Assembly: GCA_017552615.1 (NCBI GenBank) | Contig: JAFZPI010000020.1 | Location: 1-64,000, forward strand | Direction of reading: 5' to 3' | Source: Clostridia bacterium | GTDB taxonomy: Bacteria; Bacillota; Clostridia; Christensenellales; Aristaeellaceae | DNA length: 64,000 bases | Shown here: one piece after another, positions 20,030-28,966 of the stretch | Layout of the letters: each line of letters opens with the position of its first letter | Position numbering within the stretch: position 1 is the first letter of the stretch | Translations under genes and position numbers: made by a program | The notes under the pieces: generated by a model | Databases searched by the model: none | What the model was told of the DNA's origin: nothing | What the model saw: the letters and a program-made list of their open reading frames with translations, nothing else

Positions 20030-20125
20030 AGAATCCCTCCGTTGCAGTTTTCTGTCTCTGGCTTGCAGTTTACATGAAATCGGGGGAATTTGCAAGGTGA
20101 GGAAAACAGGTTTATAAAAGGCTCA

Positions 20126-20154
20126 TTGACAAATACACAAAGATTGTGTATAAT
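20126..20154 (+). promoter_or_regulatory. Consensus promoter of hicAB
   Basis: TTGACA at 20126-20131 and TATAAT at 20149-20154 with a 17-base spacer: a perfect sigma-A consensus. Such strong promoters are typical of toxin-antitoxin operons that are held down by their own antitoxin. Confidence 0.9.
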
Positions 20155-20176
20155 GCAGCCGAAAGGGGAAATGAAA

Positions 20177-20377
20177 ATGAACCCAAGAGGCAACCTTCTA
20201 AAGAAATTGAAGGAACTCGGATTTGTGCTTCAAGAGGACGGCACCAGGCATGACAAATATCACAGCAAAGAGTTAAACTATACAGTCATGGTAAGTCGAA
20301 GCAGTAAGTTTGACGAAGATGACGCCAGGATGATCCTGCAGGAAATCAGGCGAGAAAAGCGTCGGCAAGGGAAATGA
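20177..20377 (+). CDS. hicA: HicA-family mRNA interferase toxin
   Basis: A 66-residue protein of the HicA type, a small double-stranded-RNA-binding-like fold that cuts mRNA and stops translation. Residues 1-30 (MNPRGNLLKKLKELGFVLQE) form the first helix and strand, and RHDKYHSKE gives the His-containing strand where the catalytic His of HicA sits. The ATG at 20177 has AGGGG eight bases upstream; a longer frame from 20090 would start before the promoter's -35 and is rejected. It lies 56 bases before hicB, in the usual toxin-first order. Confidence 0.88.
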   Translation: MNPRGNLLKKLKELGFVLQEDGTRHDKYHSKELNYTVMVSRSSKFDEDDARMILQEIRREKRRQGK

Positions 20378-20433
20378 GCTGCCCCATGTGATCTTGATTG
20401 CCGTCATCTTTCAAAAGAAGGAGGAGTATACCA

Positions 20434-20826
20434 ATGAAAGGAATGTACGTCGCCGTGATCCACCCGCGTGAAAACGGCAACGGTTATGAATGCCGCGTGC
20501 CGGATTTCCCCGGATGCATCACAAGTGGTGCAACACTTGAAGAAGCCTGCGATATGATCGAGGATGCTGCAAACTTTTGGGCGTGCGACATTGAGACGGA
20601 CGGAAGAGACATGCCCGGAAAAACCGCCTACGCAGATGTGGCACATGAACCCGGGGACATCGTTCAAATGATCCGCGTTGACACAGAAACCTACCGCCGG
20701 GTAAACGATAATCGCGCTGTCAGGAAAAATGTGTCGATTCCGGCATGGATGGCAGCCCAGGCTGATCGCAGAGGCATTAACTGCTCCCAGGTCCTTCAGG
20801 AAGCATTACGAGCACGGCTTGCATAA
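20434..20826 (+). CDS. hicB: HicB-family antitoxin
   Basis: A 130-residue antitoxin. Residues 1-60 form the partial RNase-H-like fold of HicB (YECRVPDFPGCITSGATLEEA, with the PDFPGC signature) that covers the toxin; the C-terminus (RKNVSIPAWMAAQADRRGIN) is a ribbon-helix-helix DNA-binding segment that would repress the operon promoter. AAGGAGGAG lies eight bases before the ATG. It follows hicA and is closed by a clear terminator. Confidence 0.92.
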   Translation: MKGMYVAVIHPRENGNGYECRVPDFPGCITSGATLEEACDMIEDAANFWACDIETDGRDMPGKTAYADVAHEPGDIVQMIRVDTETYRRVNDNRAVRKNVSIPAWMAAQADRRGINCSQVLQEALRARLA

Positions 20827-21342: not shown

Positions 21343-22464
21343 TCAAATCCCCGCTCTCCGCAAGGCCAGTTCCGCAAAGAACCGGGCAGCGGGCCAGAGG
21401 GCTTTTTCGTTCACGGTGAACTTCGGGTGGTGGTTGGTGTACCCGCCGCCGGTGCCGACGCGGACGAAGAGGCCGGGGACATCCCGCAGGTACTCACTGA
21501 AATCCTCGCCGCCCATCGTGTTGGCCTGGGGCGCAACATCGAAGCCCATCTCCCGCGCGAGGCTCTGCGCGTACCGGCAAAGCTCGGGGTCGTTCATCAC
21601 GGGTCCCGGGCCGATATCCCAGCGGATCTCCGATGTGCAATTGTGTGCCTTGGCAATCATCTCCGCCATCTCGCCCAGTCGCCGGCGAAGCGTTTTGCGC
21701 AGGTCTTCGTCAAGGGTGCGGAGGGTGCCCTCCAGCAGGACTTCCTCCGGGATGATGTTCCAGGTGTTGCCCGCCTGCAGGTGCGCGAAAGACAGCACCG
21801 CGGGCTCGAAGGCGTCCTTCCCGCGGGTAATGAGCGTTTGCGCGGAAAGAATCAGGGCAGCCGCCGCGGGAATGGAGTCCACGCCGAAATGTGGGTTCCC
21901 CGCGTGCGTGCCCTTCCCGCGGATCGTGATCGTAAAGGCGTCCGGCGCAGCCATCACCGGGCCTGTCTTCAGGCCGAGCATCCCCGCCGGGAAAGCCGGA
22001 TAGGTGTGGCAGGCGTAATACTCTTCGACATCCTGCAAGGCCGGCTCCCGCGCCATGATATGCCCGCCCTCGGAGGTTTCTTCCCCGGGCTGGAAGACGA
22101 TCTTCACCGTGCCTGCCAGTTCATTCCGCCGCTCCGCCAGCAGGAGGGCGGCGCCAAGTACAGCGGACGTGTGGAAATCGTGACCGCAGGCGTGCATCAC
22201 CCCGGGGACTTCGGACGCATAGGGCAGGCCGCTCTCTTCGGTGATCGGCAGGGCGTCCATGTCCGCGCGCAGGCCGATCGTACGGCCAGGCTTTGCGCCG
22301 CGGATCACCGCGATGCTCCCCGTAGGCAGGCTGCACGGCAAGAACTCAACACCCGTCGCCGCGAGCGCTTCCCGGACTTTGCCGGATGTGCGCGTCTCTT
22401 GGAGGGCTAGTTCCGGGTGGCGGTGAATATCTTCAAAGAATGCAATCAGCTGCTGTTCGTTCAT
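21343..22464 (-). CDS. M20-family amidohydrolase (hippurate/N-acetylated amino acid deacylase type)
   Basis: A 373-residue zinc amidohydrolase that removes an acyl group from an N-acylated amino acid. Metal and active-site motifs are in place: LRADMDALPI, VMHACGHDFHTS, FQPGEETSEGGH and a C-terminal HH in TNHHPKF. The dimerisation domain is in the middle (TIRGKGTHAGNPHFGVD). Members of this subfamily include N-acetyl-diaminopimelate deacetylase (DapL-type route), which would fit the decarboxylase two genes upstream; hippurate or indole-acyl hydrolases are alternatives. The Cas6e-like gene ends four bases upstream. Confidence 0.92.
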   Translation of the reverse strand: MNEQQLIAFFEDIHRHPELALQETRTSGKVREALAATGVEFLPCSLPTGSIAVIRGAKPGRTIGLRADMDALPITEESGLPYASEVPGVMHACGHDFHTSAVLGAALLLAERRNELAGTVKIVFQPGEETSEGGHIMAREPALQDVEEYYACHTYPAFPAGMLGLKTGPVMAAPDAFTITIRGKGTHAGNPHFGVDSIPAAAALILSAQTLITRGKDAFEPAVLSFAHLQAGNTWNIIPEEVLLEGTLRTLDEDLRKTLRRRLGEMAEMIAKAHNCTSEIRWDIGPGPVMNDPELCRYAQSLAREMGFDVAPQANTMGGEDFSEYLRDVPGLFVRVGTGGGYTNHHPKFTVNEKALWPAARFFAELALRRAGI

Positions 22465-22468
22465 GACC

Positions 22469-23077
22469 CTAATCCTCCCAGAAGGTATGGTTCCGCGCGA
22501 TGGTCATCAGGCCGGCGCCTTCCTCCCGGGCGCTCCCGATGCCCGTAGAGACCGCCCAGACGAACGTATCCTGATCCGTCACGGTCAGGACGCCATCCCA
22601 GTGGCACGCGTGGATAAATACGTCGTCCAGCGGCAGCCACTCGCAGCGCGTGACAACGGCCTTCTCAACCTTGAATCCGCAGAGCGAAGACTGCAGTTCC
22701 AGCCACTGGTTCAGTCGATAGGGTTCCAGCCAGGCCGGATCCGGGTCCGGCCAGATTCCGCGCGGCGAAGCCGAGAGGGAGAAGTTCCAGGTCGTACCGG
22801 TCTCTGCCCGCTCCAGGGTCTCGTCAAAATCAAAGGTCTCCCAGCTTGGAAAGACGCCGGGATAGCCGTAACGCTCATGGGCGGAATACAGGGTGGGGCG
22901 CAGGCGGGAGAGCACCACCAGCCACTGGCGGCTGCCGATCATCTCCAAGCGGAAAAGGGGCTGCATGTTGCCCCCGGAAAACGCCGCGCGGACTTCTTTC
23001 AGGATCTGGACAGGGTTGGCCAGCAGTTCCGCGGTCTCGGGACGGTTCACGTCCAGCGCCATCCTGGTCAGAAACAC
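22469..23077 (-). CDS. Isolated Cas6e (CasE/Cse3)-like protein with altered catalytic site
   Basis: A 202-residue protein that reads like the type I-E CRISPR RNA endonuclease. It opens with MFLTRMALDVNRPETAELLA, continues with LFRLEMIGSRQWLVVLS, YGYPG..PSWETFDFDETLERA, FSLSASPRGI, and ends with WDGVLTVTDQDTF...GIGSAREEGAGLMTIAR, which matches the glycine-rich C-terminal loop and GVLTV strand of Cas6e. The alpha-1 position that holds the catalytic His in E. coli CasE (His20) and T. thermophilus Cse3 (His26) is here VQILKE, with Leu26 in the equivalent place by eye, and the RNA-contact RLRANP is SLSASP. The start is GTG with AAGGGGG nine bases upstream. It sits between a decarboxylase gene (36 bases) and the M20 gene (4 bases); no cas gene or array is nearby. 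It might bind RNA without cutting, or be a relic. Confidence 0.75.
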   Translation of the reverse strand: MFLTRMALDVNRPETAELLANPVQILKEVRAAFSGGNMQPLFRLEMIGSRQWLVVLSRLRPTLYSAHERYGYPGVFPSWETFDFDETLERAETGTTWNFSLSASPRGIWPDPDPAWLEPYRLNQWLELQSSLCGFKVEKAVVTRCEWLPLDDVFIHACHWDGVLTVTDQDTFVWAVSTGIGSAREEGAGLMTIARNHTFWED

Positions 23078-23113: not shown

Positions 23114-24376
23114 TTACCGCTTTACGCCCAATGCTTCCGCTGCCGGATCCAGGTCCAGCGTCGCGAAGTAGTCCGCCGGGGTCTCCGCGCGGCGGATCAG
23201 TCGATAGGTTCCGTCCTTGGTATACAGCACTTCTGCCGAGCGAAGCCGCCCGTTATAGTTGTAGCCCATTGAGAATCCGTGGGCACCGGTGTCGTGAATG
23301 ACCAGCAGGTCACCCTCTTTGATCTCAGGCAGGGGGCGCTGAATTGCGAACTTGTCGTTGTTCTCACAGAGACAGCCGGTGATATCGTAGATATGATCGC
23401 ACGGGTCATCCCGCTTGCCGCAGACGGTGATGTGGTGGTACGCGCCGTACATGGCCGGGCGCATCAGATTCACCGCGCAGGCATCCACGCCGACATAATG
23501 CCGGTAAGTATCCTTGTGCCGAACGGCCCGTGTGACCAGCCAGCCCTCGGGACCCGTCATCCAGCGGCCGAGTTCGGTCTTAACTGCAACCCCGCCGTCG
23601 GGGAACGCCTTCTCATACACCTGCCAGACGCCCTCTCCCACTGCCAGGATGTCTGTCTCCGCCTGGTCCGGACGGTAGGGGATGCCGACGCCGCCTGAAA
23701 GGTTCACAAAGGCCACCGGCATCCTGGTCGCCTCCGAGAGTTCGCGGGCTGCCTTGAAAAGAACACCCGCCAACGTCGGGTAATAGGCGGTATCGGTATT
23801 GTTGCTGGACAGGAAGGCGTGAAGGCCAAAGCGCTTCGCTCCAAGGCCTTTCAGTTTCAGCAAGCCTTCCTGTAGCTGGTCATACATAAAGCCATACTTG
23901 GCCTCGCCGGGGTTGCCCATGATTTCGGTGCCAATGCGGAAATCGCCGCCGGGGTTGTACCGACAGCAGACGGTCTCCGGGATGCCCGCCGTGCGCTCAA
24001 GGATCTCAATGTGACTGATATCATCCAGGTTGATGATCGCCCCCAGCCGCCCGGCATGCGCAAACTCCGCGTCCGGCATGGCATTCGCGGAGAACATGAT
24101 GTCCCGCCCGCGGAAGCCGAGCGCCTCCGCCAGCATCAGCTCCGTTTCGCTGGAGCAGTCCAGCCCGCAGCCCTCTTCCTTCATGATGCGCAGGATCGCA
24201 GGGTTCGGCAGCGCCTTGACCGCGAAATACTCCTCGAAATCCGGGCACCAGGCAAACGCTTTTTGAATAAGCTTCGCGCGCCGACGGATCCCCTCCTCCG
24301 AATACAGGTGGAACGGTGTCTGAAATTGTTCTGCAGCAGCTTCAAATACAGAATCCGGCAAAGACAGATTGGGCAT
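23114..24376 (-). CDS. PLP-dependent fold III decarboxylase, diaminopimelate decarboxylase type
   Basis: A 420-residue enzyme of the alanine-racemase-like barrel decarboxylases. The PLP lysine is in YFAVKALPNP (about residue 50), and the family segments are present: GLDCSSETEL, FSANAM, LGAIINLDD, HAFLSSNN, NLSGGVGIPYR, and TELGRWMTGP. The partner-subunit motif is CENNDKFA where CESGD is usual. It most probably makes lysine from meso-diaminopimelate, but related enzymes act on ornithine, arginine or carboxynorspermidine. The start is ATG at 24376, with GGAGGGGA upstream. The amidotransferase-like hydrolase gene ends 50 bases upstream, and the Cas6e-like gene follows. Confidence 0.85.
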   Translation of the reverse strand: MPNLSLPDSVFEAAAEQFQTPFHLYSEEGIRRRAKLIQKAFAWCPDFEEYFAVKALPNPAILRIMKEEGCGLDCSSETELMLAEALGFRGRDIMFSANAMPDAEFAHAGRLGAIINLDDISHIEILERTAGIPETVCCRYNPGGDFRIGTEIMGNPGEAKYGFMYDQLQEGLLKLKGLGAKRFGLHAFLSSNNTDTAYYPTLAGVLFKAARELSEATRMPVAFVNLSGGVGIPYRPDQAETDILAVGEGVWQVYEKAFPDGGVAVKTELGRWMTGPEGWLVTRAVRHKDTYRHYVGVDACAVNLMRPAMYGAYHHITVCGKRDDPCDHIYDITGCLCENNDKFAIQRPLPEIKEGDLLVIHDTGAHGFSMGYNYNGRLRSAEVLYTKDGTYRLIRRAETPADYFATLDLDPAAEALGVKR

Positions 24377-24426
24377 GGATCTCCCCTCCGATACGGTGAA
24401 AACTTCGCGTGTTATGATACCACGCC

Positions 24427-25164
24427 CTATACGGCCTGACAAGTTTTTCCGCTGTACGCGCGGCAGGCCTCGACAAAGCTCCGGAAAATCGCTCGGCTGG
24501 CTTCGTCGTGCGCGCTGAGCAGTTCCGGGTGCCACTGAACACCCAGTGCAAACCGTTTTCCCGGCAACCACGCAGCCTCCGCCAGCCCGTCATCCGCCTC
24601 AGCCATGAGCTTCAACCTCGGCGCAAGGGTGCGGATCGCCTGATGGTGCAAACTGTTAACCTGAAGGTTCTCCCCGCAGATTTCCCACAGCAGTGTGCCC
24701 GGAAAAACGTGCACACTGTGCATTGCCTTATCGCCGATTCCTTCCTGTCTGTGCGCGATCGCTGACGGCCTCTGGGACGGCAGGTCCAGCCACAGGTCGC
24801 CGCCCAGTGCCACGTTCAGCACCTGCAGGCCTCTACAAATGGCTAATAGCGGCTTGTCCGCCGCCAGCGTCTTCCGAGCCAGCCACAGTTCCACCTCGTC
24901 ACGGAACGGACAAGTCACCACCGTCCCCGTGGTGTCGGTTTGCCCGAAGCGCTCAGGTTCCACATCCGGCCCGCCGGTCAGCAGGATCCCGTCGCAGCGG
25001 TCCAGCACTTCCCGCAGTGTGTCCTCTCCCTCCGCCAGTGGCAGCAGCACCGGGAGGCCTCCGGCGGCCAGCACACTCTCCATATAGGCCGGGCGGACCC
25101 ACACCCTGCGCTCAGCGATATCCAGCGAAGGGGTTAACCCGATCAAAGGTCTTGCGTTCTTCAT
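24427..25164 (-). CDS. Class I glutamine-amidotransferase-like hydrolase (peptidase C26, gamma-Glu-GABA hydrolase type)
   Basis: A 245-residue Cys hydrolase like PuuD, which cuts gamma-glutamyl amides. The catalytic triad is visible: Cys in LLAICRGLQ, His and Glu in GVQWHPEL. LLTGGPDVEPERF is the usual GG.D.P motif of this family. The start at MKNARPLIGL (25164) is chosen because it matches family N-termini; the open frame goes 14 codons further. Together with the fold III decarboxylase and M20 enzyme downstream it may process gamma-glutamyl or N-acyl amino acids or polyamine precursors. Confidence 0.9.
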   Translation of the reverse strand: MKNARPLIGLTPSLDIAERRVWVRPAYMESVLAAGGLPVLLPLAEGEDTLREVLDRCDGILLTGGPDVEPERFGQTDTTGTVVTCPFRDEVELWLARKTLAADKPLLAICRGLQVLNVALGGDLWLDLPSQRPSAIAHRQEGIGDKAMHSVHVFPGTLLWEICGENLQVNSLHHQAIRTLAPRLKLMAEADDGLAEAAWLPGKRFALGVQWHPELLSAHDEASRAIFRSFVEACRAYSGKTCQAV

Positions 25165-26769: not shown

Positions 26770-26905
26770 ACTTACACCCTGCATTCTCTGTATTTGCGGT
26801 GCGCCATGCGGATTGTCAACGGCGCACCCGCATCATACTACAATGAAAAGCAGAACGCAAGAAATCACTCATCCCGTTTTTGCATACAATTCTACAGCAT
26901 TTGCC

Positions 26906-26934
26906 TTGATAATTCGAAAAATGTGCTTTATAAT
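26906..26934 (+). promoter_or_regulatory. Promoter of the beta-helix protein gene
   Basis: TTGATA (26906-26911) and TATAAT (26929-26934) with a 17-base spacer, 49 bases before the start codon. A near-consensus sigma-A promoter. Confidence 0.82.
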
Positions 26935-26983
26935 CGCCTTGGAACTCACAAGCAGACCCTTAATTCAGGAAGGAGAAGCCAAC

Positions 26984-28966
26984 ATGATCTATTATGTGAA
27001 TGCCTCCGCCTCCCGTGACGGCAACGGCAGCAAGGAAATGCCCTTCCGCCACATTGACGATGCAGCCCGCGTGGCCGTGGCCGGGGACGAGGTTATCGTC
27101 GCGCCAGGTATTTATCGCGAATACGTGAATCCCCGCAATGCCGGAACGGAAGAACAGCGCATCACCTACCGCTCCGAGAAGCCCCTTGGCGCGGTCATCA
27201 CCGGCGCAGAACCGCTCTCCGGCTGGAAGAAATACAAGGGGAACGTGTGGACCCGCCGCGTGAATAACGGTGTGTTCGGCACGTACAACCCCTACACGAC
27301 AAAAGTCTGCGGCGACTGGTATTTCGCGCCGACCGTGCGTCACACCGGCTCTGTCTTCCTGAACGACAAGATGATGTATGAGACCTCGAGCATCGAGGAT
27401 TGCCAGAAGGGCGAGCCCGATCCCTGTGCCTGGAACCAGGAGGAAGCCAAATACCTCTGGTACACCGAGCAGGACGGCGACGAGACTGTCCTCTACGCCA
27501 ACTTCCAGGGCCTGGACCCCAACGCCGAAAAAGTCGAGCTCGTCGTCCGCCGCAACTGCTTCATGCCGGACAAAACCGGCGTGGGCTATATCACCGTGTC
27601 CGGCTTTGACATCAACAAGGCCGCCACGACCTGGGCACCGCCCGCCGCCTACCAGGACGGCATGATCGGCCCGCACTGGTCCAAGGGCTGGATCATTGAG
27701 GACTGCGAGATCTGGGGTAGCCGCTGCTGCGGTATCTCCCTCGGCAAATATCTCGATCCGGAAAACGATATGTATTTCTTCCACAAGCGCGTCAAGTCCC
27801 CGACCCAGATGGAGCGCGACGCGGTGTGCCGCGGCCAGTACCACGGCTGGCTGAAGGAGAAGGTCGGCAGCCACATCATCCGCCGCTGCCACATCCACCA
27901 CTGCGAGCAAACCGGCATCGTCGGCCGCATGGGCGGCGTCTTCTCCACGATCGAGGACTGCCACATCCACCACGTCTGCAACTCCCAGCAGCTGGGCGGC
28001 GCGGAGACCGCGGGCATCAAGCTCCACGCGGCCATCGACGTGACGATCCGCCGGAACCACATCCACCACTGCATCATGGGTGTCTGGTGCGACTGGCAGG
28101 CCCAGGGCGCGCGCATCACCCAGAACCTGATGCACGACAACTGGCCGCCGCAGGGCCGTCCCCATGCCATGGGCGCAATGTTCTCAACCGACGTCTTCAT
28201 CGAGGTCGGTCATGGCCCGACCCTGATCGACAACAACCTCCTGCTTTCCCCGGTGTCCGTCACGATCCCGAGCCAGGGCATCGCGGTGGTGCACAACCTG
28301 ATGCTCGGCTCCTTCAGCCTGATCAATTCCGGCGTGGACAGCATCGTCAACGGCCAGCGCGAGCCCCGTTACACGCCCTACCACATCCGCCATCGGACGG
28401 AAGTCGCGGGCTTCATGACGATCCTTCACGGCGACGACCGGGTGTATAACAACATCTTCGTCCAGCAGCACCCAATCGACCACCCGGAGCGTACGCCCGA
28501 GAACAGCGACTATGAAGTCGTCGGCACGTCGCCCTTCGACATCTTCCCGAGCTACGACGAGTGGTACGCTCCCTTCAAAGAAGGCGAGGAACCCAACATG
28601 GGCGGCCTGGGCAAGGCCCACTTCGGCCACCTGCCGGCCTGGGTGGGCGGCAACGCCTACTTCAACGGCGCGACCGTCAGCAAGCACGACACCACCGGCA
28701 AGGTTTGCAAGCGGAAAGTCTCCGTTACCTGGGAAGAGAAAGACGGCAAGACCGTTGTGAAGACCAAGCTGTACAGCCAGCTGAAGGATTTCCGCGACGG
28801 CCTGATCCACTCCGACCTCCTCGGCTATGCCTTCGAGCCCGAACAGCGCTTCGAGAATCCCGACGGCTCCGCCATCCTCTTGGACCGGGACATCTTCGGC
28901 AACCACCGCGGCACGGAAGCCCTGCCGGGCCCGTTTGCGGAAGCAATGGAAGAGGTTGTGTTCTGA
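26984..28966 (+). CDS. Right-handed parallel beta-helix protein, probable polysaccharide-active enzyme
   Basis: A 660-residue protein without a signal peptide. It opens with IYYVNASASRDGNGSKEMPF and GDEVIVAPGIYREYV, the usual entry of pectate-lyase-like beta-helices (DUF1565 type). The middle has repeated histidine-rich coils (RRCHIHHCEQTGI, IEDCHIHHVCN, RRNHIHHCIMGVWCD), which are ladder turns and may line a groove. The C-terminal region (FEPEQRFENPDGSAILLDRD) is not typical for lyases. GH families with this fold (for example GH141-like) and lyases are both possible; without a signal peptide it would act on imported oligosaccharides. AGGAAGGAGA lies seven bases before the ATG; a longer in-frame reading from 26813 would begin upstream of the promoter. 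Confidence 0.8.
   Translation: MIYYVNASASRDGNGSKEMPFRHIDDAARVAVAGDEVIVAPGIYREYVNPRNAGTEEQRITYRSEKPLGAVITGAEPLSGWKKYKGNVWTRRVNNGVFGTYNPYTTKVCGDWYFAPTVRHTGSVFLNDKMMYETSSIEDCQKGEPDPCAWNQEEAKYLWYTEQDGDETVLYANFQGLDPNAEKVELVVRRNCFMPDKTGVGYITVSGFDINKAATTWAPPAAYQDGMIGPHWSKGWIIEDCEIWGSRCCGISLGKYLDPENDMYFFHKRVKSPTQMERDAVCRGQYHGWLKEKVGSHIIRRCHIHHCEQTGIVGRMGGVFSTIEDCHIHHVCNSQQLGGAETAGIKLHAAIDVTIRRNHIHHCIMGVWCDWQAQGARITQNLMHDNWPPQGRPHAMGAMFSTDVFIEVGHGPTLIDNNLLLSPVSVTIPSQGIAVVHNLMLGSFSLINSGVDSIVNGQREPRYTPYHIRHRTEVAGFMTILHGDDRVYNNIFVQQHPIDHPERTPENSDYEVVGTSPFDIFPSYDEWYAPFKEGEEPNMGGLGKAHFGHLPAWVGGNAYFNGATVSKHDTTGKVCKRKVSVTWEEKDGKTVVKTKLYSQLKDFRDGLIHSDLLGYAFEPEQRFENPDGSAILLDRDIFGNHRGTEALPGPFAEAMEEVVF

What the first reader, a model, noticed from the sequence alone, without database searches (positions are those of the whole stretch)
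22469..23077. Isolated Cas6e-like protein with its catalytic His replaced, inside a metabolic operon
The 202-residue product follows Cas6e from the MFLTR start to the GVLTV strand and the final GIGSAREEGAGL loop. Cas6e normally cuts CRISPR repeat RNA and travels with cas3-cse1-cse2-cas7-cas5. Here it lies 36 bases after a diaminopimelate-decarboxylase-like gene and four bases before an M20 gene, with no array or other cas gene in 64 kb. The position of the catalytic His in the first helix (E. coli His20, T. thermophilus His26) reads as Leu26 in VQILKE, and RLRANP is SLSASP. It may have become a non-cutting RNA-binding protein with a new target, or it may be a relic kept by operon structure.
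Basis: partly seen in the sequence, partly recalled or inferred. Interest (0 to 1): 0.85.

Follow-up and report, generated by a model that had tools for sequence, protein, structure and literature searches.

The report
CRISPR protein repurposed beside lysine gene
In two related genera of Clostridia a CRISPR RNA-cutting protein, Cas6e, appears to have lost its cutting residue and its RNA-gripping charge and to live on as the neighbour of a lysine-making enzyme's gene, with no CRISPR locus around it, which suggests a CRISPR part turned to an unknown metabolic job.

Summary
The 202-residue gene (window 22469-23077, minus strand) is a true Cas6e homologue whose catalytic His26 reads Leu26. It is not a one-off: I found 16 members of one clade, in 10 of 12 genomes of the same genus, 5 of the 9 that I identified in a second genus, and one possibly contaminated bin. 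Fourteen of 16 lie directly behind the same diaminopimelate decarboxylase gene, lysA (gap 18-112 nt). In the stretches held, 0 of 16 have another I-E cas gene, an array or an I-E repeat hairpin. The 17 other Cas6e genes examined in the family and order all lie in I-E cas operons and keep His26. His26 is missing in 15 of 16 clade members, charge has flipped (pI 4.6-6.1 against 9.1-10.2), basic segments are shortened, and a new invariant set appears (R50, W52, R60, H67, GVFPSW). dN/dS is 0.09-0.29 in seven closer pairs, so it is a working gene. The M20 neighbour is incidental. I read it as an exapted, non-cutting Cas6e tied to lysA. Partner or regulator of LysA is my best guess for its job; RNA binding in the old way is less likely. 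The mechanism is not shown.

The parts
22469..23077 (-). Cas6e-like gene (202 aa, GTG start), catalytic His absent, acidic
   Evidence: PF08798 E 2.2e-25; position 26 is Leu; profile comparison with 15 I-E Cas6e E 7.4e-45
22841..22879 (-). codons 67 to 79, HERYGYPGVFPSW: H67, G71 and G74-V75-F76-P77-S78-W79 are invariant in the clade
   Evidence: 16 of 16 clade members; H67 in 0 of 17 I-E Cas6e (alignment); G71 is also G in 11 of 17 and W79 also W in 8 of 17 I-E proteins; coordinates computed from the start at 23077
23000..23002 (-). codon 26 (Leu), place of the catalytic His of Cas6e
   Evidence: coordinate computed from the start at 23077
23114..24376 (-). lysA-like diaminopimelate decarboxylase (420 aa from the ATG that relatives share; the ORF is open to 24571)
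   Evidence: TIGR01048 E 2.8e-81, 273.2 bits, below its cut-off 297.9; best solved structure 2yxx, DAP decarboxylase, E 9.9e-50; a match at E 1e-90 in 264 of 308 family genomes
24414..24442 (-). sigma-70-like promoter site just upstream of lysA (TTGTCA, 17 nt, TATCAT)
   Evidence: 10 of 12 matches, TG before the second hexamer; 4 such sites in the region against 1.4 in shuffles, so a consensus match only
21343..22464 (-). M20 amidohydrolase gene: neighbour, not a conserved partner
   Evidence: PF01546 E 6.6e-38; found in the window only, among 15 regions (11 clade loci and 4 I-E loci)

Best explanation
A Cas6e gene was captured behind lysA in an ancestor of two related genera of Clostridia and exapted. 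It no longer belongs to a CRISPR locus, its catalytic His is gone and its basic segments are trimmed (shown by sequence); so it probably no longer processes CRISPR RNA (inferred). It is the gene downstream of lysA, probably on the same transcript, and is kept by selection (inferred from gene order and dN/dS). Most likely it works as a protein or ligand-binding partner of the lysine pathway, for example a regulatory or stabilising partner of LysA, using a new conserved site in its first half (R50, W52, R60, H67, GVFPSW). This last step is inference.
For: Homology: 16 of 16 members match PF08798; clade profile against a profile of 15 I-E Cas6e 100% probability, E 7.4e-45; Foldseek ranks 1-25 are all Cse3/Cas6e or Cascade entries, though from a weak model. 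One clade: the 16 are one side of a branch, support 100/99. Catalytic site: position 26 is Q6, R3, C2, K2, L1, Y1, H1 in the clade and H in 17 of 17 I-E proteins. Charge: net -4 to -15, pI 4.6-6.1, against +4 to +10, pI 9.1-10.2. Context: I-E cas genes 0 of 16 against 17 of 17; array-like repeats 0 of 16 against 15 of 17; I-E repeat hairpin 0 of 16 against 17 of 17. lysA directly upstream in 14 of 16, gap 18-112 nt, while behind lysA of 17 genomes without the clade gene other sequence lies, which varies. Selection: NG86 dN/dS 0.085-0.29 in seven of the 11 pairs tested.
Against: There is no direct evidence of any interaction with LysA. No LysA position separates 16 bearers from 14 near non-bearers better than shuffled labels (best 0.68; shuffles' median 0.62, 95% point 0.73). 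In G008 the gene lies away from lysA. One member (L056, in G300) has His at position 26, and three second-genus bearers have Cas1 elsewhere in the genome, one of them a full I-E operon (G300, G296, G297). Joint presence or absence with lysA (15 both, 6 neither, 0 single in the two genera) is weak evidence: the genes are adjacent, the six genomes are 66-89% complete, and the four of the second genus also lack the neighbouring ROK gene. dN/dS was 0.57 for one pair.
Confidence: 0.42

Rival explanations
1. A non-cutting RNA-binding regulator: it keeps the Cas6e hairpin-binding mode and acts on the lysA messenger or on another structured RNA.
For: The glycine-rich loop (G179, G181, G187, G189) is kept in 16 of 16, R43 in 15 of 16, R50 and R60 in 16 of 16. 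The genome bin holds a dispersed multi-hairpin element: 10 of 13 hairpin-pattern places in G000; it could be a target. Hairpin-pattern counts also exceed the reversed-pattern control in some other bearers (for example G005 12 against 0, G008 7 against 0), which I did not look into.
Against: Net charge -4 to -15; the segment between P105 and W125 is 16-19 residues with 0-4 Lys/Arg against 21-28 with 3-7, and five columns near residue 152 are deleted; the loop Lys (K15, R2 of 17) is R9, Q3, K2, L1, H1; no I-E-like hairpin in any of the 16 loci; no regulatory Rfam family in 16 loci (which held at most about 200 nt upstream of lysA).
Confidence: 0.22
2. A protein with a separate function, unrelated to lysine, whose place behind lysA is inherited from one insertion and kept by a shared promoter.
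For: It diverges fast (30-74% identity to the window protein) beside a slow LysA (70-81% to the window's, bearers); it survives away from lysA in G008 behind other genes; no LysA signature.
Against: Adjacency kept in 14 of 16 across two genera while the genes further out differ between loci.
Confidence: 0.24
3. A nuclease with a new active site: the invariant His67 (with Arg50 and Arg60) replaces His26.
For: His67 in 16 of 16 and in 0 of 17 I-E Cas6e; Arg50 and Arg60 in 16 of 16 against 4 and 2 of 17. A paper describes a Cas6 with an atypical active site (PMC3652601, search listing and start of abstract only).
Against: Acidic protein with basic segments trimmed; where His67 would lie relative to an RNA is unknown because the model is poor (pLDDT 48).
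Confidence: 0.07
4. A decaying relic kept by operon structure, or a gene-calling artefact.
For: Loss of the catalytic residue and of all partner cas genes at the locus.
Against: Open frame in 16 of 16 (the stop flagged for G300 is that gene's own end, 194 aa), 32 invariant columns, dN/dS 0.085-0.29 in seven closer pairs.
Confidence: 0.04

Closest known systems
Cas6e / Cse3 / CasE of type I-E CRISPR-Cas (PF08798, TIGR01907)
   Same: Full-length homology and, by a weak model, the same fold
   Different: No His26, acidic, basic segments trimmed, below the TIGR01907 cut-off (0 of 11 members scored are over it; 10 of 10 I-E controls are), no cas operon or array at the locus
Derived I-E module with a STAND NTPase in Streptomyces, and other CRISPR exaptations in PMC8730458 (section 6 read; passages)
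   Same: A Cas6-bearing I-E derivative without array or adaptation genes put to another use
   Different: The cases in that section keep several cas genes together; here a single Cas protein stands alone with a biosynthesis gene
Cas6 enzyme with an atypical active site (PMC3652601; search listing and start of abstract only)
   Same: Catalytic residues can differ within the Cas6 superfamily
   Different: By its abstract that is a CRISPR RNA processing enzyme; this one has no CRISPR locus

Membership tests
Cas6e (type I-E) | homology to PF08798 / Cse3 | tested here: met
   16 of 16 members match PF08798; profile comparison E 7.4e-45; 1wj9 E 1.9e-9
Cas6e (type I-E) | score over the NCBIfam equivalog cut-off (45.2 bits) | tested here: not met
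   0 of 11 members with printed scores (best 32.5 bits); best E among all 16 is 8.6e-8; 10 of 10 I-E controls over it
Cas6e (type I-E) | catalytic His in helix 1 | tested here: not met
   absent in the window protein and in 15 of 16 members; present in L056; present in 17 of 17 I-E proteins
Cas6e (type I-E) | I-E cas operon with array | tested here: not met
   I-E cas genes 0 of 16 against 17 of 17 (some of the 17 cut by region or contig ends); arrays 0 of 16 against 15 of 17
Cas6e (type I-E) | binds and cuts repeat RNA | not testable with these tools
   needs biochemistry
Diaminopimelate decarboxylase (partner gene) | homology to lysA / solved DAP decarboxylases | tested here: met
   TIGR01048 E 2.8e-81, 2yxx E 9.9e-50
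Diaminopimelate decarboxylase (partner gene) | score over the TIGR01048 equivalog cut-off | tested here: not met
   273.2 against 297.9 bits, scored on the 485-aa ORF
LysA with a Cas6e-like partner | physical or functional interaction | not testable with these tools
   no LysA site signature, which neither shows nor excludes it

The most novel reading that the evidence does not exclude
A single Cas protein has been domesticated into core metabolism: a former CRISPR RNA nuclease became a dedicated, non-nucleolytic partner or regulator of diaminopimelate decarboxylase, with a new binding site (R50, W52, R60, H67, GVFPSW) built on the Cas6e scaffold.
Probability: 0.38. Interest if true: 0.87.

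Novelty: new variant of a known kind. Interest (0 to 1): 0.73.

Why it matters
The CRISPR exaptations in the review section that I read (PMC8730458, section 6) keep several cas genes together. A solitary Cas6e-derived protein that is conserved, has lost its nuclease residue and basic surface, and sits behind a lysine-synthesis gene would show that a Cas part can enter housekeeping metabolism, and gives a small, testable two-gene system. Six library searches listed no paper on it; four of the six listings were capped (20 of 47, 20 of 180, 10 of 1,733, 12 of 16 papers shown), and subscription papers and preprints are not held.

Tried and rejected
Its Foldseek hits agree with Cas6e, but I placed no residue in space from it.

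Autoregulation through a known RNA: no regulatory Rfam family in 16 loci of 2.3-3.6 kb (one tRNA and two matches below gathering); these loci hold at most about 200 nt upstream of lysA.

CRISPR repeat hairpins elsewhere in the genome: the pattern gave 13 places in G000 (reversed-pattern control 2); ten are one dispersed multi-hairpin element, not an array. G010, which has a real array, gave 64. Counts above control in some other genomes were not examined.

Phage or plasmid origin: the one phage-collection hit, MT835722.1, is an unannotated contig with a full I-E operon. The IMG/VR scan found no relative. Plasmid hits are 23 records, 19 Streptomyces and 4 Bifidobacterium; the five listed are annotated cas6e.

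Co-loss with lysA: looked striking, then weakened when the ROK neighbour proved absent too in the four second-genus genomes.

LysA interface signature: none above shuffles. dN/dS by YN00 failed for all 11 pairs; NG86 gave 0.57 for L025/L027, 0.19 and 0.20 for two saturated pairs, and no value for L057/L058.

Wrong steps: one search translated minus-strand loci in the wrong orientation; redone. The frame picking took antisense frames in some loci and missed lysA in L026; corrected with tblastn. G424's match is a canonical Cas6e with His26 and, by eye, cas neighbours.

Full report
What is there. Window 22469-23077, minus strand, codes for a 202-residue protein. It is a real Cas6e homologue: PF08798 E 2.2e-25 over its full length, and weak similarity to TIGR01907, below cut-off.

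It is a conserved clade. A search of 100 relatives found 15 genomes with a match, the own genome included; a search of 308 genomes of the family found 38 genomes with 43 places. I fetched 32 regions around matches besides the window: 30 of the other 42 places and two of the order. The 12 places not fetched (9 genomes) all score 69.2 bits or less, against 193.4 or more for the clade. By neighbourhood the 33 proteins fall into 16 and 17. Sixteen have no other I-E cas gene in the stretches held (64 kb for the window, 7-20 kb for the rest): the window, nine more of the same genus (L019-L027), L028 and L056-L059 of a second genus, and L060 from a bin of a third genus with 8% contamination that also holds a lysA of its own kind. 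The other 17 (1 of the same genus, 14 elsewhere in the family, 2 of the order) lie in I-E cas operons, some cut by contig or region ends. The 16 form one side of a branch with support 100/99. Samples of 396 genomes of the order and 391 of the class gave, besides the own genome, no further member at E 1e-35 and 1e-40; the single other hit, G424, is canonical.

How it differs from Cas6e. Position 26 is His in 17 of 17 I-E proteins; in the clade it is Q6, R3, C2, K2, L1, Y1 and H1 (L056). A column this free is what one expects if cutting is no longer selected, but the single His is a real exception. Net charge is -4 to -15 (pI 4.6-6.1) against +4 to +10 (pI 9.1-10.2). The segment between P105 and W125 has 16-19 residues with 0-4 Lys/Arg, against 21-28 with 3-7; five columns near residue 152 are deleted. 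The loop Lys (K15, R2 of 17) is R9, Q3, K2, L1, H1. Conversely R50, W52, R60, H67 and G74-W79 are invariant in 16 of 16; in the 17 I-E proteins H67 never occurs (alignment), R50 in 4, R60 in 2, W79 in 8. That the trimmed segments touch RNA in solved Cas6e structures is recalled, not measured here. The NCBIfam Cas6e model separates the sets: 10 of 10 I-E proteins tested are over its cut-off, 0 of 11 clade members with printed scores are.

No CRISPR locus. Array-like repeats are in 15 of 17 I-E stretches and 0 of 16 clade stretches; the I-E repeat hairpin is in 17 of 17 and 0 of 16. By genome, of 18 tested, Cas7e is in G010 and G300 and Cas1 in G010, G300, G296 and G297. So none of the ten same-genus bearers has either, within the limits of incomplete bins; G300, G296 and G297 of the second genus carry CRISPR genes elsewhere besides the clade gene.

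The partner. The gene directly upstream is the same lysA-like gene in 14 of 16, 18-112 nt away. In L019 the contig begins 167 nt upstream, and lysA of that genome ends 19 nt from the end of another contig. In G008 the two genes lie apart. The partner is a diaminopimelate decarboxylase by similarity, below the TIGR01048 cut-off. At E 1e-90 it is found in 264 of 308 family genomes, once in each row listed except G260, G325 and G347. In 17 genomes without the clade gene the sequence behind lysA varies; by eye it includes phosphoesterase-, pseudouridine-synthase- and methyltransferase-like frames. M20 is found only in the window among 15 regions. A promoter-like site precedes lysA, in second-genus loci a ROK-like gene lies upstream of lysA, and by eye terminator-like hairpins follow the Cas6e-like gene in some relatives. 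I read a lysA operon with this gene at or near its end.

Selection. NG86 dN/dS is 0.085, 0.168, 0.290, 0.265, 0.214, 0.217 and 0.237 for seven closer pairs, 0.572 for L025/L027, 0.19-0.20 for two saturated pairs and undefined for one, 11 in all. The relic reading is therefore unlikely.

Presence and absence. In the first genus 10 of 12 genomes have both genes and 2 neither; of nine second-genus genomes that I identified 5 have both and 4 neither. This looks like joint loss, but the six are 66-89% complete, the genes are adjacent, and the ROK neighbour is missing too in the four second-genus genomes. I count it as weak.

Origin. The LysA tree does not resolve whether bearers form one group (4 changes on the best tree, 1 forced by well-supported branches). 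One capture behind lysA in a common ancestor with later losses is the simplest reading; it is inference. The two named relatives, both of the same genus, are titled Clostridia, one from goat omasum.

How it most likely works. Shown: homology, absence of His26 in the window protein, charge change, neighbourhood, selection. Inferred: no cutting of CRISPR RNA, co-expression with lysA. Guessed with moderate confidence: a protein or ligand-binding role with LysA or lysine. Against this guess, no LysA position marks the bearers better than shuffled labels. RNA binding is kept as a rival because the glycine-rich loop and some Arg are conserved.

What is known. A review of CRISPR exaptations (PMC8730458; passages, and section 6 read) describes in that section multi-gene derivatives, including a Streptomyces I-E module, and no solitary Cas6 in a metabolic operon. 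PMC5571608 (passages only) treats Cas6-like variants of pathogenic E. coli, compared there with K-12 Cas6. Searches, some with capped listings, showed nothing on Cas6 with lysA.

Noticed in passing
G000 contigs C1, C4, C7, C14, C19, C21, C29, C32, C37, C38 (L096-L105): Dispersed multi-hairpin intergenic element, ten copies with the same GC-rich hairpin core; the 14-base inner core is not in the window. Might be a REP- or MITE-like repeat, or an RNA target.
   Followed up: partly
window 20090-20377 and 20398-20826, + strand: By eye a HicA-like and HicB-like pair (toxin-antitoxin type); not searched.
   Followed up: no
window 26813-28966, + strand: 717-aa right-handed beta-helix protein with a glycoside hydrolase 120 insertion domain (PF21258 E 4.5e-39, PF13229 E 1.9e-10).
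   Followed up: no
MT835722.1 (L109): Record filed as a bacteriophage holds a full type I-E cas operon and looks like a bacterial contig.
   Followed up: partly
G347 contigs C90 (L060) and C23: Two lysA genes in one bin: C90 groups with second-genus LysA and has the Cas6e-like gene behind it, C23 is 62% identical to the window's; transfer or contamination.
   Followed up: partly
L032, L071, L072, L073: A second I-E lineage in the family with a distinct Cas6e branch (length 1.95) and mostly CCCCAC-type repeats; no cse2 match there.
   Followed up: no
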